Assembly: GCA_963402885.1 (NCBI GenBank)
Contig: OY727095.1
Span: forward strand, 811,001-875,000
Reading direction: 5' to 3'
DNA: 64,000 nt
From: Antedon bifida
Lineage: Eukaryota > Echinodermata > Crinoidea > Comatulida > Antedonidae
Shown here: piece after piece, positions 2,358 through 64,000 of the stretch
Position numbering within the stretch: the stretch's first letter is position 1
Layout: the number at the start of each line of letters is the position of its first letter
Made by a program: the position numbers and the translations under genes
Notes under the pieces: generated by a model
Told to the model about the DNA's origin: nothing
The model's database searches: none
Seen by the model: only the letters and a program-made list of their open reading frames with translations

Positions 2358-5300
2358 CATTTTCAATGTAGATTCAAAACAGTGTGTCTTCAGTTTCCAG
2401 TCATCAGGTATACATTCAATTCCATTCTGTACAAAAATAAAGAAAACACTGATATGAATTTGAATCTAGTTTAAGACCACTAACAGGATTATAAATACAG
2501 TCAACTCTCCTAATACCAGACACCTTTGGGCTGGCCAACAAGATTTTATTATGAATTTTTCTACGTGAAGCAAAATATGACTTCCCTATTAATTTATGTA
2601 TACAGTAAACATTTTACATGTGCATCATTAAAAACAAATTTCAAAATGTTCTCTTTAATTTACATAGACAAGTGGCAACGGTCTCATGTAGAATCTGTAT
2701 CTATCTTGAGCGTAAACCGCTCCGCATTGTGTGTAAATGGTCATAAGGAATATTATATTTTTATTACCCCTGACTACATCGTAAAACTCACCCTTGCTGC
2801 TAAGCAAGCCCCAACATATGAACATCTACTAGTACAGCCTGCTGCCCTCATTGTTGTCCGTATCGCGTCACAATAATCAGTTGTATTAATCAGGCAATGA
2901 AGTGTTGACTGGAATGCTTCTGGGATATCTTCAATTAGAAAATAGAAATAAATGTTATATTTTGAATTAGAAACCAGTATGGTTAATTTAGCAAGATAAA
3001 GAGAAATTTGATTAGAATTTCTTAGGAAAATCATCATAAAAAATACATACAAAGTGATAACATAAATTAGTGACAAATAAATACATTTAAAGAATAAATA
3101 CATTTACGTTCACATGTAAAATTATTGATAATAATTTGTTGTTAATAGGCCAATACAGAAATACTAAATCAATGGTGATTGGTTGATTTGATTTATTTCA
3201 ATACCATAACATAAAGAACACAAGCAGAAAAACAAAACAGAATCATTAGTATGGTATCAGGAATAGCCCTCTAATGTGGTACCAGGAATAGCCCTCTAAT
3301 GTGGTACCAGGAATAGCCCTCTAATGTGGTACCAGGAATAGCCCTCTAATGTGGTACCAGGAATAGCCCTCTAATGTGGTACCAGGAATAGCCCTCTAAT
3401 GTGGTACCAGGAATAGCCCTCTAATGTGGTACCAGGAATAGCCCTCTAATGTGGTACCAGGAATAGCCCTCTAATGTGGTACCAGGAATAGCCCTCTAAT
3501 GTGGTACCAGGAATAGCCCTCTAATGTGGTACCAGGAATAGCCCTCTAATGTGGTACCAGGAATAGCCCTCTAATGTGGTACCAGGAATAGCCCTCTAAT
3601 GTGGTACCAGGAATAGCCCTCTAATGTGGTACCAGGAATAGCCCTCTAATATGGTACCAGGAATAGCCCTCTAATGTGGTACCAGGAAGAGCCCTCTAAT
3701 GTGGTACCAGGAAGAGCCCTCTAATGTGGTACCAGGAAGAGCCCTCTAATGTGGTACCAGGAAGAGCCCTCTAATGTGGTACCAGGAAGAGCCCTCTAAT
3801 GTGGTACCAGGAATAGCCCTCTAATGTGGTACCAGGAATAGCCCTCTAATATGGTACCAGGAATAGCCCTCTAATATGGTACCAGGAAGAGCCCTCTAAT
3901 GTGGTACCAGGAATAGCCCTCTAATGTGGTACCAGGAATAGCCCTCTAATATGGTACCAGGAATAGCCCTCTAATATGGTACCAGGAATAGCCCTCTAAT
4001 GTGGTACCAGGAAGAGCCCTCTAATGTGGTACCAGGAATAGCCCTCTAATGTGGTACCAGGAATAGCCCTCTAATGTGGTACCAGGAATAGCCCTCTAAT
4101 GTGGTACCAGGAATAGCCCTCTAATGTGGTACCAGGAAGAGCCCTCTAATGTGGTACCAGGAATAGCCCTCTAATGTGGTACCAGGAATAGCCCTCTAAT
4201 GTGGTACCAGGAAGAGCCCTCTAATGTGGTACCAGGAATAGCCCTCTAATGTGGTACCAGGAATAGCCCTCTAATATGGTACCAGGAATAGCCCTCTAAT
4301 GTGGTACCAGGAAGAGCCCTCTAATGTGGTACCAGGAATAGCCCTCTAATGTGGTACCAGGAATAGCCCTCTAATATGGTACCAGGAAGAGCCCTCTAAT
4401 GTGGTACCAGGAATAGCCCTCTAATGTGGTACCAGGAATAGCCCTCTAATGTGGTACCAGGAAGAGCCCTCTAATGTGGTACCAGGAATAGCCCTCTAAT
4501 GTGGTACCAGGAATAGCCCTCTAATGTGGTACCAGGAAGAGCCCTCTAATGTGGTATCAGGAATAGCCCTCTAATGTGGTACCAGGAATAGCCCTCTAAT
4601 GTGGTACCAGGAATAGCCCTCTAATGTGGTACCAGGAATAGCCCTCTAATGTGGTACCAGGAATAGCCCTCTAATGTGGTACCAGGAATAGCCCTCTAAT
4701 ATGGTACCAGGAATAGCCCTCTAATGTGGTACCAGGAATAGCCCTCTAATGTGGTACCAGGAATAGCCCTCTAATGTGGTACCAGGAATAGCCCTCTAAT
4801 GTGGTACCAGGAATAGCCCTCTAATGTGGTACCAGGAATAGCCCTCTAATGTGGTACCAGGAATAGCCCTCTAATGTGGTACCAGGAATAGCCCTCTAAT
4901 GTGGTACCAGGAATAGCCCTCTAATGTGGTACCAGGAATAGCCCTCTAATATGGTACCAGGAATAGCCCTCTAATATGGTACCAGGAATAGCCCTCTAAT
5001 GTGGTACCAGGAAGAGCCCTCTAATGTGGTACCAGGAATAGCCCTCTAATATGGTACCAGGAATAGCCCTCTAATATGGTACCAGGAAGAGCCCTCTAAT
5101 GTGGTACCAGGAAGAGCCCTCTAATGTGGTACCAGGAATAGCCCTCTAATATGGTACCAGGAAGAGCCCTCTAATGTGGTATCAGGAATAGCCCTCTAAT
5201 GTGGTACCAGGAATAGCCCTCTAATGTGGTACCAGGAATAGCCCTCTAATGTGGTACCAGGAATAGCCCTCTAATATGGTACCAGGAATAGCCCTCTAAT

Positions 5301-8300
5301 GTGGTACCAGGAATAGCCCTCTAATGTGGTACCAGGAATAGCCCTCTAATATGGTACCAGGAATAGCCCTCTAATGTGGTACCAGGAATAGCCCTCTAAT
5401 GTGGTACCAGGAATAGCCCTCTAATGTGGTACCAGGAATAGCCCTCTAATGTGGTACCAGGAATAGCCCTCTAATGTGGTACCAGGAATAGCCCTCTAAT
5501 GTGGTACCAGGAATAGCCCTCTAATGTGGTACCAGGAATAGCCCTCTAATGTGGTACCAGGAATAGCCCTCTAATGTGGTACCAGGAATAGCCCTCTAAT
5601 ATGGTACCAGGAATAGCCCTCTAATGTGGTACCAGGAATAGCCCTCTAATGTGGTACCAGGAATAGCCCTCTAATGTGGTACCAGGAATAGCCCTCTAAT
5701 GTGGTACCAGGAATAGCCCTCTAATATGGTACCAGGAATAGCCCTCTAATATGGTACCAGGAATAGCCCTCTAATGTGGTACCAGGAATAGCCCTCTAAT
5801 GTGGTACCAGGAATAGCCCTCTAATGTGGTACCAGGAATAGCCCTCTAATGTGGTACCAGGAATAGCCCTCTAATGTGGTACCAGGAATAGCCCTCTAAT
5901 GTGGTACCAGGAATAGCACTCTAATATGGTACCAGGAATAGCCCTCTAATGTGGTACCAGGAAGAGTCCTCTAATGTGGTACCAGGAATAGCCCTCTAAT
6001 GTGGTACCAGGAAGAGCCCTCTAATGTGGTACCAGGAATAGCCCTCTAATGTGGTACCAGGAATAGCCCTCTAATGTACACCCCAAGTGGTCTCCATACA
6101 AGATTCTACCTTATGAATTAATTTATTACGCTAAACTGAGGTTAACCATGTTTTAACTTTGAAAGAGCAAGAATTAACATGATGAAGAAGATCACATCAC
6201 ATAGAAGGTCATGTTTGTGAAGATCATGTTAAATTTTGAATGTGAACCTAGGTTATTTGCAGTGAAATAAACAAATTACAGAATTTAATCAAAATAATAG
6301 TAATACTCACAGCATTGGTTTTTGAAGACTTCTGTCGCGGCTTTTCTATGAGGAATTTCTTTTGCATTTATCACTGCCTGGAACTCATCAGCTATTGCAG
6401 CATCTAATGGTGTTGGGTTCTTTCTATCAGGATTCTTGAGTTCTTTTATGACAACGTCCAAAGCATTATCTGCTTTGTCACCATACAAGATGTACTGCTC
6501 AAGAATTCTGAATAAATGTTAGGTTAAACTTTATTATTCTTTGCAATGAAATTGTGCAACTTTGCAATCATTTTTGGAGGTACAGTAGTTGTTTAGGTGT
6601 AGCTTTTAATTTGCAACGACCGTCAGTTAATCGATGTGTCATTGGTCGTCTGGACCCAGAAACCACCTAAACTGTGTTGAGGTGAGTGAGGAGGCACATC
6701 CCAACTTCCCCTGCATGCGCACAATAAATTGACATGACCTACTGTAGCTCCCTGCTGACCAATGAATTGTTAAAATAGAGTCTATTTCATGCCTATAGCT
6801 TACCTGGATAAACTGACAGGTAATCAAGATATACAACAGCTTGGTTTGTCTACAGTAGTACAGTATTTACAGCCAAATTGATAAACAATGTCAGTTTCCT
6901 GACAGCAATGAAGTGCAACATGAAATAAGCTGTTTGTGGTAAATACAGGAAATTTTGAAAGAGATATTTAAAGGCTAAGGTACTGTAAACAAAACATTTT
7001 TACTTCAAGGTGATTATTACCTGGCAGCAGCTAATCCGTATGACACAGCTTCTTGCGACGTCAACACGACCCGGATCGAAGCTTCAACCATTTCTAGCAT
7101 ATTTTCCTTCCCAGCATACACTGCAACAATTGATACTACTGGAACCACAGCATGCATATCCTTCATTTTATCTAAATCTGAAATTGTATAAAATTAGAAA
7201 TTATTTCAAACTCAAAAAGTACATGTACTGTAAGTAGCTAAATAGGCCAAGTACAGGTTTTATTCAAAATTGTACCCAACAGCAGCAAAACCTGCTATTA
7301 CATTTGATGGAGATAATATACGGTATTAATAATATAAACTAACTTTGTAACAACATCTAGAACTATCAAAGGATCAAATTTCAATAAACTTTAATGTTGA
7401 TATAAAGTTTGCGGTACACCATGTGTATTAGTTCTGAAATTCTCACTCCTGAGGATGATCAAAGCATATTGATCGAAACGTCAAGAAACTCAACAGTTCT
7501 CTTCAGAACTAAATATGTGGTGTACCTCAAACTTTATATCAACATTTGAATTCGCCATGCAAACCTTCAAACAATTAATAAACTTTAATGTTATCTTTTT
7601 CAACACAGACATTTAAATTGAATTTTAGTATAACTAGTAATACGAGTATAAAAACCATTTTTATGAAGTACAAAACAATTTTTGAGAGAAAAGAGGTTAT
7701 GACATAACTTACTATTTTCTTGACCGTCACCAAGGTGATTCTGCAAGAAATATTTAACGCAGGCGGACCGCCAGGGTCCTTCAATTGGAAGTTTCTTCTG
7801 TACATTTTTATCGACGACGATAGCATTTAGAGGTTGTTTTTCGTAGTCACTATCAGGACCAAACATGTTTACAAGTTCCTTAGCGTATTCTTCTGCACTG
7901 AAACCTGTTAAATGAATAAATATATAAATACAAAAATATATCTCCTAATTATTAGTGAAACAAATGATGAATTAATAAATGTATTTGTTAAAAATATTTA
8001 TCTTTTTACTAATATTAGGAAAAAACTCTGTCTTCTGGAACCCAGCCTACTTTTCAACACTCATATTGCGAACTTAAATCATTAAATCTGGCAGATGTAA
8101 AATAATTATGTAACCACATGCGTATTACGAAACTTGAATCATTAACTGTAGTTTACAGTGAGAGTTTCACCTTTTGCTGTATAGACAGATTTCAGCAAAC
8201 TCATGATGTGGTCTCCATACACAGTATTCCGTCCAGTTGGAAGGGTGTAAAATGGATTCCTGGAGGGATTCCAGAATTCCATTGGTTTATCTCCAACTAT

Positions 8301-15514: not shown

Positions 15515-18500
15515 TTATTCTTGTGCAGTTTTAATTCCGCCAAAAACTTCAGATGGGACAGATTGTTTCTCAATATTGACCTCGTCTACATCAGCTTCGC
15601 TCTCGTCATCATCGTCGCTATCAATTGCAATCTCTTCAGGATTGGCAGTCCTGACTGCCTCCTCCAGCTCTTCGTTGGTGGCCTTGTTGTCGCTCCTAAA
15701 GAACAAAAAATGATAGGAATATAGTTGCCTCTTCAGTTACAATAATTTCTGAATTGGTAATATTGAAGAATTTGTTTCCAATTCCAGATTACTTTATAAC
15801 TGTAATATTTAAATGTAAATTAGCTGCTTTGAATAACAGGTGTAATTGATATTAAAGTGTAGCTGAGAGGTCACAGTTCAGCATGTAAAAGTGAGGAGGT
15901 TCACAAACCAACCAAAGTGAGTCAATTAGTTGCTTGTTAAATTTGTGTAGATGTGCATAGCTTGTATGTAGTTAGGCATAACACTACACCTTTCTTTCTG
16001 TTTTTTTTTTAAATGTCTATATTCAAACTGGATTTGTGCAGTTAATATCAGGAACTTGTACAGATTGTCTAATTGTAATATGAGCCTTATGTTGAAATCC
16101 AGCCAAAAGCTCTATTGACCCAGCAATAATCTAATTTGATATTTACCATATCCCTGCCTTATTAATACAGTACTAATAACACATTTAGAAAGTGTATATA
16201 AAGGGAATTATACCTGACAAATAGGATATCCTTTTTGGTCTTTGGTTTATCAGCCTCTGCTTCAGCAGCCAATGCTTGTGCTCTCTGCTCCAAGATCTTC
16301 ATATCATCCAAACCACCTGAGCCTAGGTCAGACACTAAAACATAACAACAATAGCCTTAGTTAAAAAGGAAAGCTAAGTGGCTGATCCTTCAGTTTCTGC
16401 AAACTTGGTGGGTCATTTTATTTTGATTGTACAAGAACTTTTTATACTCATTATAGACAATTTTTACAGCCTGGCCGTATACAATTGTCCAATACTATAA
16501 TATTTTTCAATGTACTCTTTTTGATTGTACTCATTTTGACAGTCCAAATTCAAAACTATAATTCATACCAGCGTATATTCCTATGCTCGAGTAGAAATTG
16601 TTAATGCAATTCATGTACTCTGTAAACACACAGCCTAATTGTTACCAAGTTTTATACCTAGGCCCCCTGAGACCATACTATACACAGTAATAATTTTGAG
16701 ATAAAGCTCTGTCTACACTATCAAACTAGTTTGACAAAAAAGTGTTATGTGCCCAAATATGGTAGTGATATGCCCAAATATGGTAGTGATATGACATCAT
16801 CATGGGCACATCAGATTTTTTTGTCACATAAAGTTTTTAGACAAAGCTTAAGTTTTCTAGTATGATATAAGTTGATGCACAAAAGGTTTCTAGCAAGATG
16901 CAGGCAGTGTTTACCTGTGCCCGGTGTAAGTTGACTAGATGCAGACAACATCTGCGCTGACATGAAGTTGACCTGCGTGTTGTATGTGGCTTGTACACTA
17001 CGCTTGATACGCAACATCTCCCTCACGGTGTCCTCGTTACCGTGTTTGATTTCAAATTCTTTCCAAGTTTGCCAAAATGATGCGGTAGTCTGAAGAATAA
17101 TGAAGTTTATCAGTCTATATTTGTAAGTAAAATGAAGACCAGTACATATATATTGACAACTTAGCATCCAAAAAGAAGTAAATACATTTCTTTTAAACAA
17201 CAGGATTGTATATAAGAATCTAGTCATATAAGTATTTTAATATATTTTTTATCTTTTATTGATATTTTTAGAACAGTGGATGACTCTTTGAGCTGGATAT
17301 TATCAATTAATATAATTAATATTGGGTTTTATTAAACACCTTAATTGATAAAAAGTTATTTGAGATATAGAGTGTCTTTAAATGCACAGCATGAAATGAC
17401 AGCAATTTAAAGGATAGCAAATAATATTATATACAGCATCCCACAATTATACTCACCCTAGGGTCACACATCTGAGAGCAATGTGCATAGACTGCTCGTG
17501 CTCTATCAATCTCGCCCAGTTTGCGTTCTAAATCTGCATAGCGAATGCACATCTCTCTGGCTTGCTCATCCCCTAGTACTTCTATGGCCGTCTCGTACGT
17601 AGTTCTTGTATGTGTTACACCGTAGATCTCGGCTGCTCTTTTGATGTAAATATTGAACATCTAAAATCAAGAAAGTATATTAAAATTTATAAATAAAATT
17701 TCTTGATAAATATACAGACAAAACATCCTACAATTTTGTATGAATTAAATAGGTCTCAGTTCGGAGAGTTTATTATATCTAGTCTATAGCTATTAATATA
17801 CTGTTACAGGCAAGGGTACTTTACTTGGGTACCAACAAATCAAAGCTGCCTACCTCATACTGTTCTGTTGGTAACACTGCCTTGGTGGCTCTCTCATATA
17901 CTGCCATAGCATGCCTAGCCAATCCATAATTTTCTTCCAATTTTGCATACAGTAAGTACAATGCTACAGAAAGAACAATTCCAGTTTAAAAAGTTTTAGA
18001 ATACAGAAAAAAACTTGATCTAGTGGGAAAGGTGGATGGAAAAACATTGTTTAATAATTTATTATAAAAATGTTGGATAACCCCTCAGGTATATGTATAT
18101 ATATTTTTTTAAAGTGATAAACAAGGCATCATGTATGGTTCACTATCTTGTAACAAATTAATTAAACAAATACAAAATTAATTAAACAAACATGTGATTA
18201 CATTTGGCATATTTTGCTGGACATTCTTCTAGACACTGTTCAAATAAATCCCTTGCTCTTTCCAATTTTTTTCCTTCCTGAAATAAAAATCAAAATCCAC
18301 ATCAAAGAGTATTATATATTATAAATTTAAAAATGAAATAACAATTATATTGTTTTCATTCATTTGTGTAGATTTTTAATATCTATCTTTTCTCATTAAT
18401 ATATATTTTTTTTAAATTAATTAATAGGAAATTCCTAATGTACTAACTTTTTTTTTCTTTAAATTTATTTATACTGTCAATATTTATTTATTTTTTTTAA

Positions 18501-21500: not shown

Positions 21501-24500
21501 GTTCTTTAAAGTGCACATGAGCTATGTGTACACTGGACCTACAGTTTATATTTCAAAGCCTTTTGGGCATAAAGCTATTGCAAATCATACTTTATGGTAT
21601 GATTGGTAGATTGTACTTTAATACAACAAACTGAATTAAAACACACTCACTTCTCTTGGCTTGCCTTCATACAATTTAACTCGCTTATGCCATTCATGAA
21701 CATTATGTGGATTTTGCCGCAACAAGACACTATTCAACAGTAGAGGGCGCCTTTCCATTAGGTACTCGTATCGCTCTAGCCTTAAGTCCAGGTCAATATC
21801 ATCTAGATTGAAACATTTAAAAAGTTTCAAGATAAAATAGATAGCAATACAATAATCATATTTAACCATAAATCTATCAAATGTTATATTCATAATGACA
21901 ATATTAATAATAATATTTACCTTCTTCTGTTGGTCCCAAATCAGAAGTAGTCTCCATCCTGGCACTAATCATGCCTTCTTCAAATTGTGCATAAGCATCA
22001 AACACCTGCATGGAGACCAACAACACACAGTTGAATGTTGAAGCAAAAACATTAATGCAAATAACAGTAACAATAATTAAGAAGTTGAAAATACCTGTGT
22101 AAAATCACGAACAGTTGTGACGGTCAGAATAGCTTCTTCATAAATATCACGTGCCTACAAATAAAAGTAATAGTAACAAATAATTTAAAATGATTGAACA
22201 CAAAATAATACAATTGAGGACTGGTACCTTTCCAGCATACCATGTTGAGAGTGGTCTAATGGTTGGCAAACATTTCAAGAGGAAGAGTCCAAGTTAAAAT
22301 TTTAACTCAATTATTTTATGATATATATATTATATATATATTTAAAACTTGATGCGGAAATCTGTGTATTAGTGTGAAAGGTTGAACCAACTCTGGCCAA
22401 AAATACATATTCAATATCTTAAATTCTAAACAGCCTATTTTGAGAACTAATATGCGATTAGTTTTCAGCTCAAGTACTTTAGCCAAATAATTTGAATTAC
22501 TTTTTCAAAGTGTCCACTTCTAATGTAATAATCGGCAAGCGAACACCAGAGTTGACCTCGTTCATCGGTGAAGCGCTTGATTCCCTGGCGGATGATGGGG
22601 TCAACCTTCAAAGACTTGACCTTTGTAGGATTCTTACATATTAGATCACATAGATCATGCCATAGCTGAAAATACAAACAGTATAAATGTTAAGAAATGT
22701 TCATAACTCTTTCTAATATTGAAAATACAAAATAGTTTTTAGAAGAAATATTACACTTGAATGTTGCATATTCTGAGCTGTCATCAATTACATATTTTTG
22801 CACTCCGGACTTTAAATTAATGGTGCTTATACCTAATTTCCACACACATTTCATTCAAAAATAAAGGGTTGGCTTATATCTAAGGGTGGGCTTATATCTA
22901 AGGGTTGGCTTATATCTAAGGGTGGGCTTATACCTAAGGGTTGGCTTATACCTAAGGGTGGGCTTATACCTAAGGATGGGCTTATATCTAAGGGTGGGCT
23001 TATACCTAAGGGTGGGCTTATACCTAAGGATGGGGTTATATCTAAGGGTGGGGTTATATCTAAGGGTGTTCAATAGGGTGTCTGTACCTGATGATTGGAC
23101 TTTCCTTTCTTGGATATAAACTTCTCGTCATTAACTACTCCAGCCAACCTAACTGCCGCTTCATCCAGTCGATCTATTGATATCAAATAACCAATGTACT
23201 GTTCTGCATCTTCTGGAGACAGCTATAAAAGACACACAGATTGATGAGAAGACACGATATAAAGTCAGTTTCTTTAAAGGTGAAAAAGTGAAGCCAGTGC
23301 TCATAGTGTTGGAACAAGCTTTATATTCTAAAGCTCTGTTTACACTATTAAACTAGTTATGACAAAAAAGTTTTATGTGCCCAAATATGGTAGTGATATG
23401 ACATCATCATGTTTGATAGTGTGGACAGGACTTTATTGTGAATACCACTAGTTTGCTAAAATACCTGCAGGAAACGTCTGTACACTCTCACAGCCGTCTC
23501 ATACAAAGGATGCGCAACAATGAACTTAATATACAACGGCCAGATTCGTTTATGCTGTGTGATGGGCAGCGCCCTCAACGCTCTGTCAAATGTTCGTCTG
23601 GTTCGGATGACCTTGCATTGGTCCATCAAGAACTGGCAATAATCCAACCAAATGCGAGGCATCTGAAACAGATATAATTTTTTTAAATATAGCATAGGAT
23701 CCAGAGACGTGGTAATTTGTTTTCACAGGACAGATAAATAGTAACACAGGTTACTTAACACAAACAAATTCTTGAAAGAAGTGGAGTGGAGATTTGAGTT
23801 AAACATGCAGTGACCTCCACAACTCCACACGAAAGACATACACTCTCACTTTGTCTTCAAATTATTTAAATCTTAAAATTCACATGAAATTCTTTTCCAC
23901 AGTATTATTCATTGTTTATTTTTCATACCTTATGCATAAAAACCAATCCTCTCTCAAATGCATTGTTGACGTCTTCGTAGGCTGGATCAGTTATACAGCG
24001 CCCTTTTATCTGCTTCCGGCGAACTTTCAAGTAGTTGTACCATAACTTGTAACTGGAATAAAAAAGGGATAATTATTAGGGATGATTATTTAGTCTACAC
24101 TATGTTAAAATATGGCAAATAATTTCTTTTCATATTTATCATAAAAATATCCAATTGAAAAAAATGAAAATTGCGTTAAACATTGTCCCCCTGAACAATT
24201 TTTTTTCCACATTTTTTTGTTGAATATGCCATTTTAATGTCACATTATAGTTATTCAGTTTGACCATAAATTGGATCAGAAAAAAAAAATTATTTATCAG
24301 AAAAAAAAAGTAATTCAAAGCAAAAACAATATTCAAATTGGCTGCCAGCCAATGCTTTATTTTGTCTATTTTTGTATTGTCTACAAAATGGCAAAGTCTG
24401 ATTTTATTAATCTTCATTTTCCATGTTTTTAGGGGACAATACATCTTTAAATTATTCACCTTCCAGGTAATCCCTTTAGAGCACGTTCATAGATTAGATT

Positions 24501-30319: not shown

Positions 30320-30474
30320 GCCCTGTGTCTACACTATCAAACTTTATGTGACAACAAAATGTGATGTGACATGATGATGTCATATCACTACCATATTTTG
30401 GCATATCAAGACACTACCATACTTGGGCACATCACACTTTTTTTGTAAAACTAGTTTGATAGTGTAGACAGAGC
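30320..30474. mobile_element. MITE family 1, complete copy with TTAA target duplication
   Basis: TTAA (30316-30319), then GCCCTGTGTCTACACTATC ... AGTTTGATAGTGTAGACAG and AGC, then TTAA (30475-30478). The 155-bp element has ends that are inverted copies over at least 20 bp, and the inner part is also largely palindromic (ATGATGTCATATCACTACC, GGGCACATCACA). The TTAA flanks fit piggyBac or Kolobok transposition. Confidence 0.9.
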
Positions 30475-47600: not shown

Positions 47601-50600
47601 AATATTAAATCAATGTACCATATAGAACCTCTATAATGGGACATCTTTAGGTCCATACAAAGTGTACCCTAAATCAGGGTGGACATCTTTAGGTCCATAC
47701 AAAGTGTCCCCTATATCAGAGTGGACATCTTTAGGTCCATACAAAGTGTCCCCTAAATCAGGGTGGACATCTTTAGGTCCATACAAAGTGTCCCCTAAAT
47801 TAGGGTGGACATCTTTAGGTCCATACAAAGTGTCCCCTAAATCAGGGTGGACATCTTTAGTTCCATACAAAGTGTCCCCTAAATTAGGGTGGACATCTTT
47901 AGGTCCATACAAAGTGTCCCCTAAATCAGGGTGGACATCTTTAGGTCCATACAAAGTGTCCCCTAAATTAGGGTGGACATCTTTAGGTCCATACAAAGTG
48001 TCCCCTAAATCAGGGTGGACATCGTTAGGTCCATACAAAGTGTCCCCTACATCAGGGTGGACATCTTTAGGTCCATACAAAGTGTCCCCTAAATCAGGGT
48101 TTCCCAAATGGATGGGTTCTACTGTATTTTAATACACTTACAGTATTTAACAATCACACAGTCTGAAATGAAAATACTAATAGTTACATAAATTTACTAT
48201 AATACCAGAAGTACCCACTACATTTAAAAAAATTGTATTTATCTAAAAAGTTTAATTCTGTTGAACATTTTCCTCCAAACTAAGCACAATTACAATTGTC
48301 CTAGAAAAGTGCTCTTGTCACAGCATTAAGAAATATTGCCTTCTGTGTGGTTGTCCCAAAGAAAAATTGTCATCACACATTATTAAATTCAACTTTAAAC
48401 TAAATATCAACGATATTACCATAAATAAATCAATTTTTCCACAACATGCTTTACAACTTGTAATTAATAATATTATCAAAGTTTTAATTAAGTTGATTAT
48501 ATTATAATTTTAAAATTAAACATTTTCATGCTTTCAATACTCAGCCATTCCTGTTAGATCATTGTTCAGAAATGCAGTGCATGATTGATTCCCATAGGGA
48601 AACATTTAATTACGATTTGTCAATTCAACATTAACAATAAATAAAATCAATAATGGAGAGATTTCCAAACCTTGCCAATACGGTAACGAAAAAGATAAAA
48701 CATACATTTTGAAACTTCTGAGCTAATCCCTGTTTCATAGTTTACACAGTTTTTTCATAAGTACAGTAAGAATATGATATAGTTTTGGATCTATGTTTAT
48801 TTTGTATAAGTGAAAACATTTTTTTATAATAATATTAACTTAATCAAATCTACAAAATGGCATATTAAAAGTCTGATGGTATTCATCTTCATTTTTCATG
48901 TTTTTGGGGTACAATACATTTTTAAGGCTAGGCCTAAAAGTGGGCTTAAGGTGACATAATTGCTCCAAGCTGACTGACCTTAGCTAACTGCAAATGCATG
49001 TGGAGGAATAACCTGTGACTTTCTTCTCCACTAAGGGCTGCCACTCAACAGCGCTCGTTTGTCCACAACGACAGGGGCTGAATGGACCAGTACACCGGGG
49101 TAACCCTCTACTCTTCCGAAAACTGGGTTCTTTAAAGTGCACACGAGCCAGATATGTACACGTCAGGAACTCCAGTTTTAAGTTCTTATCTAAGAAGACA
49201 CGTTTGATGTTGACATATAAGCCCTTGCGCATACTGGTTCCTAATATGGTAATCATAACCAGTTACAATCAGTTTTATTGTCGACATAAGGGCTCATACA
49301 CTACTTCCGTTCAGTTGTACTCATTTTCAATCAGTTGCTTGAAAGTCGACATAAGCTCTTTAGTTCTTTTCAGTTTTTCAATAATTCATTGTCATGCAAA
49401 ACGTGTTGCATTTCTCGTCTGATGTTGTCAATGAACTATACTGTCATTTTGTCCTGGTCAAGTACACACACTACAATTATATAATGTTTCTTTGAAATTA
49501 TTGTTGCAAAGAAGACAATTACAAACGTGATGATGTCACTGGTGACCTTCTTCTTGTCAGCCATAAATCTCTTAATTATTATTAGTGATAATGAAGGATG
49601 TCTAATAGAGAAATTTATTTCCTAATTAATTTGTTATCCATTTCACTTGTACTGAGGTTTGACGACCCAGACGTAACAAAATATAGCTATCAACAGCAAC
49701 GTTTTTCTGTATGTTGATGTTTGTTTATTTTCAGCATGGCTACAAAGCAGTAATTAAATGGCATTGACTTAGCCCTTATGCAATTTAGCTTAAGTACGTA
49801 CAATTTACACCTTTAATTGCTAACCATTAGTACCAACACATTACTGTTATAATTGTTTTGCTCTCCCAACAGTCTGTGCAGTACAAGTACCATAGAATCA
49901 AAAGGTGAGTACTCCTACTATTATAGCATTTTTCTAATATTTAATTATTCATAGGTCCTTTGAAAACAACATCTATTCATCTGTCAATTAGCAGCTAGCT
50001 GGTATCGTCCACATGGGACGTGGTAGAGCAAGGTAAACACACGTTATTGCTAAGAGGTCAATATTAATGGTTGCTGGTAATTCATCAATTTCAATTTACA
50101 ATGTTCATTGGAATATATCAGAATTCTGCTTTTCGGTTTTACTGAAGTAAGTTTAACCTTTTTTAAAGATTATGCACAGTCCGTATTATAATACAGTACA
50201 ACCTCTATTACGGGGACACCCTCAGGACCCAATAAAGTGAGTAGGAGTAGAGTCCCCTACTAGAGGTTGACAAGTGATCCTCGTTTGCTTAATTAATTTC
50301 ATCTACACATGTTGTATTTAGATGTTCTATTTGTCCTTGTATATTTCTCTAATATTGTACAGCGCTTTGGTCTTTTTATTGGAAAAGCGCTTTATAAATC
50401 TATATAGTATTATAGTAAATGTATGTGCACACATTCATTGTGTATGCAGAAGTAGCACATTAGTAAACTATCTAGAAAACTAAACACAACTTTCTACAAG
50501 TAAGTTTAAAGCTATAAGGCCCATTTACACTAATAACGATCGATGATAAATATATATTAAGCATGCATTTTTTTTACATAAAACAAAAGAAATTAGAAAG

Positions 50601-53600: not shown

Positions 53601-56600
53601 GGATGTCTCAAAAGATAAGTTGTTGTTATTTGTGAATGATAGACCTACTGCAGCCATGCAATAAATGTATTAAATTACTGTGCATATCAAAACTGCTTAA
53701 TAACTTATAGAAACAGTGATGAGTGGACAAAGAGAAAATGTTTTTTATAAATTTAGAATGGAAATAGAGGGATGGCTTGTCACCCTCAGCGGGATCTGTG
53801 TATTATTCTAATAAAATGCTTTAGTACACAAAGTGTTTTAGAACCATGCATTATAGTATGATTTGCATGTAGTATGTTTGTAGACATATGAACCACAGCA
53901 GCAGCATGTCATTTACTTTTTTTGCAATACATATGTAATTCAAGACTGCAAATTTCAAATTGGATGTATCTCAACTGAATTTATAAGCACATTTACATAT
54001 TTGTTGAGCACACATCCATTAAACAGGTCATTTGCTTGTTAATATATAAAAATATCATACAGAAATACAGTTTTCAGCACAATATTTTCAGAACAGACAA
54101 AAACAATAAAAACCTGTATAAAATAGATATTAAAGGACAACTTGACCGAGGACCATGTTTTAACTTAATGAGTCCAGATAAGCAAAAGAAACGATAACAA
54201 AATCTTTTACGATTTATTTACAAAGTGTGTTTACTAGAAATTTGCAATGATTTGCCAGACTTTGCCAGAAAACTCATGATGTAAATTTTACGATGCACCT
54301 GTGACGTCACAGCAATTTACGGCGACGGCTGTACGGCGAGCTCGTGCAGGGATATCCTTAATCTCGCGATAGTTCTGAAATAACATGTACATCCCTAATA
54401 CGTTCTCACCTAATATGGTCCTCGGTCAATTTGTCCTTTAAGGGTATTGCTATATTGAAGCAAACTTATAAATCTTTTAATTCATACAACCTTTGTGAAA
54501 GATGTAGTTGGGCAGGGCATTTGTCAATAATGTTTTATGGGTAGGCATGGAGTTTAAAATAATCCATTCAGCCTAAGCTTTATTTCAAGCATCCACCCAA
54601 TTAATTTCAAGCACCCACCCAATTAATTTCAAGCATTCACCCAATTAATTTCAAGCATCCACCCACCTAATTTCAAGCACCAACCCAATTAATTTCAAGC
54701 ACCCACCAAATTATTTTAAAGCACCTACCCACCTCATTTCAAGCACCAACCCACCTTAGTTCAAGCATCCACCCACCTAATTTCAAGTACCCACCCACCT
54801 TATTTCAAAGCACCCGTCCAATTTCAAGCATTTTTTTCTAAACCTATCAGCTACAGTATCTAAATAAATAAGTTGATTTTACCTTCTTTATATTAAAAAG
54901 AGTTTGTCCAATTGATATTGATTCTTATAATGACTTGATTAGAAATATACTCATAATGTTCACATTTAAAGTAGGCCTTTCACATTAATAAACAATATAC
55001 TTTAAATGGAAATTTGATAAAAAAGTTAATCATAATGTTTCTGGGAAGGCCATCATGTACGTAGTTAAATTTTACCGTGACATTATTACCTTTTACTAAT
55101 TTACATGAAATTGATACTGATAGAGAGAGATGAAAGCTTTGGGAATTATATTTCAGCTTCATCTTATGGCTTATGTATCGGTTTATTATTTTGAAGTATA
55201 CTTGAGATGTTATTTACAGATTAAAATATCTTTGTCAGGAAAAAAGAAATGGTGAAATTGAACAGCTGATAAGTCTGTGTTTGCGTTCAGATGAACACGC
55301 CATTCAAATAGCCCCACCCCTCCTCTTCCTCTTCTTCCGAATGAGAAAAAATGTTTTCAAACAGTAGTTTTGATAATCAGCGTTCCTGTTCAAATAACTT
55401 AAGTGGCCTGACAGACAGACAGACAAGAAATAAGTGTGTATAATAGTGCAGAAATTGTGTTGTAAAAGAAAGGAAAAAGAGTCAAGCTTAAAAATCATTC
55501 CAGAATGAAATAATAATGGAGTGAAATCATTCTAGAGTGAACTGTAATACCAGAGTGAAATATAGAGTGAAATAATGACAGGGAAATATTGACAGAGTGA
55601 GTTAATCACAGAGTGAAATAATGCCAGTAGTTGAGCTGTAGCTTGGTGGTTAACATGCTTGCCTTCCAATCCCAAGGTCCAGGGTTCAATCCTGACCTAG
55701 TGCCAGGGTTGTAACTCACAACTCTTTCAACTCCACTCCCTAAGCCTCAAATGAAACTTTATAGGCACGATAAATTATAAAATATTTTAACCATCCTGTA
55801 ATTGGCTGGTTACTCGCTGTTGAAATATGAAATTAAAAAAAAATAAATAATGCCAGAGTGAAATAATGATAGTAAAATAGTGACAGTGAAATAATGCTGG
55901 AGTGAATTAATGACAGTGGAACAACTTGATTCCAATCCTCCCCTTCCCATCCCCTTCATTAAAATAATCTTACATATTTACAATTTTAAATGACATCATA
56001 AATAAGAGGGAAATGTAGTAGTAGTGATGTACTGACAAATGACTTGTGGCGATTCAGATTGTCCACTTCAATTTACATTATAAAATGCAAAATCAGAAGA
56101 AGTTCAGAATTTTATAAAAGCTGATGGATCAAGATATCCGACATGCTTTCATTTATCCAGGTCTTAAAAACTTGTTTTAGCTAAATCAAATGCAGCCAAC
56201 GCATTTTTGTTTTTGATAAATTCTCAACTGATATTCCTGTTTAATATCAAGGGCTATATTATTTCATTTCAATAGTAATAGTACTTGCCTAGTATAACTT
56301 GGAGCTTGTATGGTTTGGGGAGAGAAACATTAACAGGATCGTGCAAGAACAAATAGATCTTGTTGTCGTCGAGTACTTCCATTTACATTTACATTAATAA
56401 AAAAAAATCATTTGTATCAATATCATTTATATAATCATTAAAATTTCAAAATAAATTACCATCATTTGCATTAATATCAACATTTACTTCAACAAATCAA
56501 CATCTTTATTATTTTTTCAACATTATCATCATTTAAGTCAAATTCTTTATTGCAATAAGTTAAGCATTTTTTAATTTACAATATAAATAACTGTTAACAA

Positions 56601-62368: not shown

Positions 62369-62953
62369 TGCTAACTTTTCTGGCTGTTTTACTTATCGTT
62401 TTTTTGTTTGTATCTCCATTGAGATCCAGCCACTGATACCCGCGGCATTGTCATTTTTTCAGTAATTTGCCTTTGGATTAATATAATAATAATAATAATA
62501 TTTATATATAATATCTTCCTACTGTAAATGGGCCTTTAAAATATACTGTATGTATCCTTTTTCAATACATGATAAAATGTGCCCTTCATAGGGGTGTCCC
62601 TCTGAATAGGGGAAGTGTATCACATAGGAAGGAGTTGTAATTTGTACTGTATAACTTTATATTTATAGCTTAAATTTCAAATTGGAATTTAATTAAATTC
62701 AAAAAGTTACATTATGTCTTCAATCCTGCAAATATTTCTTAGATAATTGCAGATATTTTTCCGAGTATTCCCTAATTATCTTGACTATGAAATTGATATG
62801 CTAGCGATATTCATGTCACATGACTGTATACTGATCATGTGACATAAGAAGTAGGCCATCCCCAAATGTGTGATAGTTTCTTATTCTGTGTCTCAGTGCG
62901 AATATTAGTATCTAGTTTGTTCTTTGGAAACATGTTTATACAGTAGTTCTTCA

Positions 62954-64000
62954 GCTCTGTCTACACTATCAAACTTTATGTGACTCTTAAGCTCTGTCTA
63001 CACTATCAAACTTTATGTGACTCTTAAGCTCTGTCTACACTATCAAACTTTATGTGACTCTTAAGCTCTGTCTACACTATCAAACTTTATGTGACTCTTA
63101 AGCTCTGTCTACACTATCAAACTTTATGTGACTCTTAAGCTCTGTCTACACTATCAAACTTTATGTGACTCTTAAGCTCTGTCTACACTATCAAACTTTA
63201 TGTGACTCTTAAGCTCTGTCTACACTATCAAACTTTATGTGACTCTTAAGCTCTGTCTACACTATCAAACTTTATGTGACTCTTAAGCTCTGTCTACACT
63301 ATCAAACTTTATGTGACTCTTAAGCTCTGTCTACACTATCAAACTTTATGTGACTCTTAAGCTCTGTCTACACTATCAAACTTTATGTGACTCTTAAGCT
63401 CTGTCTACACTATCAAACTTTATGTGACTCTTAAGCTCTGTCTACACTATCAAACTTTATGTGACTCTTAAGCTCTGTCTACACTATCAAACTTTATGTG
63501 ACTCTTAAGCTCTGTCTACACTATCAAACTTTATGTGACTCTTAAGCTCTGTCTACACTATCAAACTTTATGTGACTCTTAAGCTCTGTCTACACTATCA
63601 AACTTTATGTGACTCTTAAGCTCTGTCTACACTATCAAACTTTATGTGACTCTTAAGCTCTGTCTACACTATCAAACTTTATGTGACTCTTAAGCTCTGT
63701 CTACACTATCAAACTTTATGTGACTCTTAAGCTCTGTCTACACTATCAAACTTTATGTGACTCTTAAGCTCTGTCTACACTATCAAACTTTATGTGACTC
63801 TTAAGCTCTGTCTACACTATCAAACTTTATGTGACTCTTAAGCTCTGTCTACACTATCAAACTTTATGTGACAAAACAATGTGATGTGCCTATATATAAA
63901 CATGATGATGTCATATCACTACCAAATTTAAGCCTATCATTGCCATATTTGGGCACATCACAGTTTTTTGTTCAAACGAGTTTGATAGTGTAGACAGAGC
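62954..64000. mobile_element. MITE family 1 with its left end amplified into a 37-bp minisatellite
   Basis: From 62954 the unit GCTCTGTCTACACTATCAAA + CTTTATGTGACTCTTAA repeats 24 times, apparently identical, with starts every 37 bp up to 63842. The 25th copy instead continues into a normal family 1 interior (ATGATGTCATATCACTACC, GGGCACATCACAG) and the right end GAGTTTGATAGTGTAGACAG + AGC, finishing exactly at base 64000. The unit is the MITE terminus plus CTC and TTAA. Confidence 0.95.

What the first reader, a model, noticed from the sequence alone, without database searches (positions are those of the whole stretch)
62954..64000. A MITE whose own terminal repeat has been tandemly amplified 25-fold
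The 37-bp unit is the first 30 bp of a MITE family present elsewhere in the window (for example 30320-30474), plus CTC and TTAA, the family's target site. Units appear identical, so the expansion is recent. This shows directly how a MITE end can become a minisatellite, perhaps through repeated insertion at TTAA, replication slippage or rolling-circle intermediates. Tandem transposon ends could also act as transposase-binding arrays.
Basis: partly seen in the sequence, partly recalled or inferred. Interest (0 to 1): 0.72.

Follow-up and report, generated by a model that had tools for sequence, protein, structure and literature searches.

The report
Minisatellite grown from a MITE end
One end of a small, very common mobile element has been copied head to tail 25 times at one place; the same genome holds a few other such arrays on related copies, each with its own unit, so this looks like ordinary minisatellite birth that happened to catch a transposon end.

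Summary
The array is real. Twenty-five exact copies of a 31-bp MITE end lie at 62954-63872, period 37, and all 24 complete units are identical. They form the left end of a complete MITE whose body and single right terminal repeat end exactly at the window edge.

The unit is 31 bp of MITE end plus TC plus TTAA. The family is not a clean TTAA family. Of 67 complete copies with TTAA or TTTA (read outward) at both ends, 45 fit a 3-bp TTA/TAA duplication, 20 have TTTA at both ends and 2 have TTAA at both. This points to PIF/Harbinger, although a third of pairs do not fit.

The genome holds other tandem arrays of this end, with 19-, 35-, 37-, 52- and 63-bp units. In 3 of 7 arrays tested the spacer clearly repeats the array's own host flank. 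That indicates duplication in place across the element/host junction. For the window's array only 2 flank bases are available, so its origin is inferred by analogy.

No excess of arrays at MITE ends over an internal segment or over background was found. TIR-derived tandem arrays are in print. Low to moderate interest.

The parts
62954..63872 (+). 25 tandem copies of the MITE left end (31 bp each), period 37 bp, spacer TC+TTAA
   Evidence: 25 exact 31-mers, spacing 37 throughout, 24 of 24 complete units identical
63842..64000 (+). MITE proper: innermost left end plus body plus right terminal inverted repeat (159 bp)
   Evidence: the 39 other places scored on that strand (40 of 2977 candidates scored, one being this copy) are 89-92% identical over most or all of it; folds end to end as DNA, z = -9.5
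63979..64000 (-). right terminal inverted repeat, 22 bp, single copy (this end is not amplified)
   Evidence: genome continues with TTTAATCC
62948..62953 (+). host flank TCTTCA beside the outermost unit; differs by one base from the unit spacer TCTTAA
30320..30474 (+). ordinary copy of the same MITE family, no array, TTAA on both sides
16706..16847 (+). third copy of the family in the window, right end degenerate, TAA on both sides when read as a 3-bp duplication

Best explanation
A PIF/Harbinger-like MITE inserted here. Afterwards a short stretch spanning the element/host junction (two host bases, the target-site bases and 31-32 bp of the element end) was duplicated in tandem in place. The duplication then grew to 25 copies and stayed uniform by replication slippage or unequal exchange. 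The founding step was probably helped by the element folding into an end-to-end hairpin whose base is exactly the duplicated stretch. Shown: the anatomy, the identity of the units, and that other copies of the family carry arrays with different units, three of which carry their own host flank as spacer. Inferred: that this array arose the same way, and the roles of hairpin, slippage and unequal exchange.
For: Array and complete MITE. Arrays with other units or spacers: C7 37 bp x4, C12 35 bp x6, C16 52 bp x7, C14 19 bp x10, C14 63 bp x25 in the stretch fetched (left edge not reached), C7 62 bp x3, C16 48 bp x3, cores counted with up to 2 mismatches (found). Spacer equals own outer flank beyond the target site: L029 11/12, L061 5/6, L101 7/7, each reached by 0 of 70 control flanks. 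L101 has only two copies, like a founding duplication. L029 has the same short sequence (AAGACATA) just inside the element end and in the flank, where slippage could pair (by eye). The hairpin of the 159-bp element has z = -9.5. The best relatives of this MITE are at most 92% identical (40 of 2977 candidates scored), so no close progeny of the array-bearing element was seen.
Against: In the array itself only 2 flank bases can be compared; both match, but 26 of 70 control flanks also match (controls partly fetched for likeness to that flank), so this is no test. The outermost target bases are TTC, not TTA. No microhomology is visible at this array's own junction (by eye). Of 7 arrays, L060, L100 and L103 do not match their outer flank in register; L100 could instead be an array that moved. 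No excess of arrays at ends over an internal segment: 9 loci against 18,545 cores versus 1 against 7,995, p = 0.30; with three or more copies 5 versus 0, p = 0.33. Background minisatellites would predict about 36-44 arrays touching this 17-mer, more than were seen, so a hairpin or end-specific cause is not needed.
Confidence: 0.7

Rival explanations
1. The array-bearing element was formed elsewhere and transposed here as a unit, the transposase using the outermost end; the TCTTAA spacers are a relic of an earlier site.
For: In the C12 array (L100) the outer flank TTAAGAGG does not match the spacer TTTATAGATGCTG (4 of 9), and TTAA stands at both outer borders. The window array's outer target bases (TTC) differ from its spacers (TTA).
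Against: No second copy of the window's or the C12 array was found by exact pattern; (window unit) agrees. In three other arrays the spacer is clearly the present flank.
Confidence: 0.15
2. Transposase-made structure: repeated insertion or aberrant cutting at the same target stacked MITE ends.
For: The target-site bases are present in each unit. The review PMC9659126 (passages) cites a Drosophila P-element study in which tandem copies were explained by multiple insertions at one site.
Against: Units are partial ends of 31 bp, not elements. Different arrays cut the element at different internal points (units of 19, 35, 37, 48, 52, 58, 62 and 63 bp), and the 19-bp array has no target site in its unit.
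Confidence: 0.05
3. Selected multiplication of transposase-binding sites, as proposed for Galileo and Foldback elements.
For: Each unit holds a full copy of the terminal repeat. The idea is proposed for Galileo (PMC3573991, passages) and Tetris (PMC4079207, passages).
Against: Only one end is amplified. No multiplied array-bearing copy was seen in the searches made. Not tested directly.
Confidence: 0.05
4. Assembly artefact: copy number inflated or collapsed.
For: 24 identical units are what a mis-assembly could also give.
Against: Non-array sequence on both sides in a 35.4-Mb contig. At 925 bp it is short for long reads, if such were used (not known here). Similar arrays with other units exist elsewhere.
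Confidence: 0.05

Closest known systems
Tetris foldback transposon and TIR-220 satellite, Drosophila virilis (PMC4079207; passages read)
   Same: Tandem repeats probably derived from a duplicated part of the terminal inverted repeat; longer homogeneous arrays; unequal crossing-over proposed for copy-number change
   Different: Units of about 220 bp within long TIRs, not the extreme end together with target site and host bases
Galileo, Drosophila mojavensis (PMC3573991; passages read)
   Same: Tandem repeats in TIRs with copy number differing between the two ends of a copy; binding-site idea discussed
   Different: Larger element of the P superfamily, units of about 210 bp located 264-467 bp inside the TIR
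Xstir on a Xenopus MITE (Hikosaka and Kawahara 2004; original not read; seen only in two reviews, passages)
   Same: MITE, tandem array, and composites of MITE plus array; the table in PMC9659126 names the TIR as the source region
   Different: PMC12628747 says instead that the unit may come from internal MITE sequence and describes a mechanism with two neighbouring elements; which is right I could not check
CMITE tandem arrays in Acropora corals (PMC2872659; abstract, introduction and part of the methods read)
   Same: MITEs forming tandem arrays in an animal genome
   Different: Described in the abstract as tandem arrays of CMITEs, with one family traced to a piggyBac-like transposon; the arrays themselves were not looked at

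Membership tests
MITE (any superfamily) | Short element with terminal inverted repeats, high copy number | tested here: met
   159 bp without the array, 22-bp perfect TIR; 11,899 exact 22-mers of the TIR in the genome
PIF/Harbinger (Tourist-like) | 3-bp TWA target-site duplication (defining feature recalled) | tested here: inconclusive
   45 of 67 complete copies fit TTA/TTA or TAA/TAA, above the 31 expected if ends were independent (p = 0.00025); 20 TTTA/TTTA and 2 TTAA/TTAA do not fit. 23 further copies in the same lists had only one end of these two types and were left out; two of the 45 look like duplicates of one copy. Single-end flanks: TAAA 54 and TTAA 26 of the first 100 listed, whereas a strict 3-bp duplication predicts equal numbers
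PIF/Harbinger (Tourist-like) | Resident autonomous Harbinger transposon with the same terminal repeats | tested here: inconclusive
   150 DDE_Tnp_4 matches (150 of 215 candidates scored). Seven stretches of 6.7-9.2 kb around transposases and 12 of about 3.4 kb: no convincing copy of this TIR. L094 and L096 have inverted ends AGGCCCGGTCACACC and AGGCAGGCATACACAG flanked by TTA (frame read by eye). Most of the matched loci were not fetched
piggyBac or Kolobok | TTAA duplicated on both sides (recalled) | tested here: not met
   2 of 67; among 30 fetched copies 5 have TTAA on both sides, a set biased towards TTAA by the query. piggyBac and Kolobok transposases were not searched for
Foldback transposon | Long TIRs made of tandem repeats at both ends (recalled) | tested here: not met
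   Only the left end is an array; the right TIR is single

The most novel reading that the evidence does not exclude
Long hairpin-forming MITEs are a standing seed for new minisatellites: replication trouble at the hairpin base duplicates the element/host junction. Each new array is therefore born with a tag of its own insertion site, which makes founder, intermediate and expanded stages readable across thousands of copies in one genome.
Probability: 0.2. Interest if true: 0.55.

Novelty: new member of a known kind. Interest (0 to 1): 0.3.

Why it matters
It gives a clean case of a minisatellite whose founding sequence and host junction are both in view. A family with more than ten thousand exact ends in one genome would allow the rate and breakpoints of tandem duplication to be measured on nearly identical starting sequences. 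As a single locus it is ordinary: tandem arrays derived from TIRs are in print, and the window is rich in minisatellites.

Tried and rejected
Rejected: a TTAA (piggyBac/Kolobok) target site (2 of 67 copies); repeated insertion as the source of the units; an end-specific hot spot as a shown fact (p = 0.30; background expectation higher than observed; the exact-match criterion undercounts old arrays, so the comparison is rough). Dating the insertion failed: the element differs from a majority consensus of 30 copies (30 of 35 found in the fetched loci could be oriented) at 14 of 159 sites, but its ends match the consensus, so family-level and private changes cannot be separated. The autonomous partner was not found. 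The host organism was not identified. Notebook entry 2 lists nine loci as tandem; three of these (L056, L057, L062) have only two cores and may be neighbouring or nested MITEs or small internal duplications. The fuzzy counts of cores were too low for some loci; one search recounted them.

Full report
What is there. Positions 62954-63872 hold 25 exact copies of a 31-bp sequence, each 37 bp from the next, and the 24 complete 37-bp units are identical (TRF: period 37, 25.0 copies). The 25th copy runs into a MITE body, and the element closes at 64000 with a terminal inverted repeat that is complementary to the array unit over 22 of 22 bases. The window lies in a 315.6-Mb genome at C8:811001-875000. 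The fetched continuation shows GAGC followed by TTTAATCC, so the element is complete and the window edge falls exactly on its end. Only the left end is amplified.

The unit. It reads as 31 bp of element end, then TC, then TTAA. The outermost copy is preceded by TCTTCA, one base different from the spacer TCTTAA. If the target duplication is three bases, the unit is two host bases, TTA, and 32 bp of element.

The family. The 22-base TIR occurs 11,899 times exactly in the genome. From two pattern searches, which demand T..A on both sides and list only their first places, I cross-tabulated complete copies on contig C1 up to 29.13 Mb. Of 90 copies, 67 had TTAA or TTTA (read outward) at both ends: 45 one of each, 20 TTTA/TTTA, 2 TTAA/TTAA; the other 23 had only one such end and were left out. 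Two of the 45 print the same sequence and may be duplicates of one copy. One of each is what a 3-bp TTA or TAA duplication gives. The excess over independent ends is significant (p = 0.00025), but a third of pairs do not fit and I cannot explain them. Of the first 100 listed single ends, 54 read TAAA and 26 TTAA. A search for the Harbinger DDE domain gave 150 matches, many with open frames. In seven fetched stretches around transposases, two (L094, L096) have inverted ends AGGCCCGGTCACACC and AGGCAGGCATACACAG, flanked by TTA in both cases when the frame is read by eye. Neither the seven nor 12 shorter transposase loci show a convincing copy of this MITE's TIR. So Harbinger is the most likely home, not proven, and a TTAA family is unlikely.

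Other arrays. A genome scan for two exact 17-base TIR cores 8-38 bases apart gave nine loci. Five have three or more exact cores: this one, C7:29221433 (37-bp unit with another spacer, 4 copies), C12:25839828 (35 bp, 6), C16:2336039 (52 bp, 7) and C14:14140588 (19 bp, 6 exact cores, 10 with up to 2 mismatches). C16:4041152 has two exact cores and a third with mismatches (48 bp); the remaining three have two cores. With gaps of 39-69 bases there are further loci, mostly two-core. Six stretches were fetched for a closer look; they include a 63-bp array at C14:17415300-17417200 (25 cores with up to 2 mismatches, left edge not reached), a 62-bp unit in three copies at C7:1463925, a 58-bp unit in two copies at C8:32000851 and a repeat of about 227 bp made of two MITEs at C9:1655874. 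The internal breakpoint differs from array to array, so they are most simply independent events.

Origin of the spacers. For seven arrays I compared the host-like part of the spacer with the array's own outer flank and with 70 flanks of other copies. L029 matches 11 of 12, L061 5 of 6, L101 7 of 7; no control flank reaches these. L060 (5 of 12), L100 (4 of 9) and L103 (7 of 14) do not match in register and are reached by 13, 24 and 11 of 70 controls. The window's array matches 2 of 2, reached by 26 of 70 controls, which were partly fetched for resemblance to that flank; it is uninformative. So duplication across the element/host junction is supported by three arrays and inferred for this one. 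The 19-bp and 63-bp arrays were not tested in this way.

How it grew. The single element folds as DNA into an end-to-end hairpin (-40.1 kcal/mol, z = -9.5 against 200 shuffles), and the duplicated stretch is the base of that hairpin. A fork stalled there, slipping between the element end and the flank, would give the founding duplication; L101 looks like that first step. Growth to 25 identical units by slippage or unequal exchange is general knowledge about tandem repeats, not shown here. Identity of all units means that growth or homogenisation is recent. The age of the insertion could not be set: the element differs from a 30-copy consensus at 14 of 159 sites while its ends match it. Its best-scored relatives are 92% identical at most.

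Is it more than background? Counted against copies, the end shows 9 tandem loci against 18,545 cores and an internal 17-mer 1 against 7,995 (p = 0.30, and 5 versus 0 with three or more copies, p = 0.33). The window holds nine other minisatellites of period 15-100 with 2.8 or more copies, and seven other stretches of 49.9 kb in all hold four. At that density 36-44 arrays would be expected to touch this core by chance, more than the handful found. The exact-match search misses diverged arrays, so this only shows that no excess is demonstrated.

Comparison with print. Six searches of the paper library were made. TIR-derived tandem repeats are described for Tetris and Galileo (passages), and MITE-derived satellites are reviewed in PMC12628747 and PMC9659126 (passages). 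The two reviews differ on whether the Xenopus Xstir unit comes from the TIR or from internal MITE sequence. In what I read I saw no case in which the unit joins the element end, its target site and host flank, but nearly all papers were seen only as listings, so I do not claim that it is new.

After the required check I corrected the copy counts of sister arrays, the end of the 16706 copy, the number of relatives, the ends of L096 and the account of Xstir.

Noticed in passing
window 3252-6077: 113 copies of a 25-bp unit (TGGTACCAGGAATAGCCCTCTAATG), 97% matches: by far the largest minisatellite in the window; origin not examined
   Followed up: no
window 22864-23068, 47639-48100, 54582-54823 and others: The window is rich in minisatellites: nine besides the given one with period 15-100 and 2.8 or more copies
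   Followed up: partly
L102 114-312 (C13:13152000-13152600): A MITE whose two outward flanks look alike in inverted orientation (TTTACAGCAAT...), followed by a further partial MITE end: possible inverted duplication of flank (by eye)
   Followed up: no
L099 (C9:1655500-1656800): Higher-order tandem repeat of about 227 bp made of two joined MITEs, about three copies
   Followed up: no
genome C1: 20 of 67 complete MITE copies carry TTTA (outward) at both ends, which a 3-bp target duplication does not explain; conversion between the two ends is one idea
   Followed up: partly
G000:C8:21.5-22.2 Mb: Many similar-scoring Harbinger-domain copies with one in-frame TAA clustered in under 1 Mb
   Followed up: no
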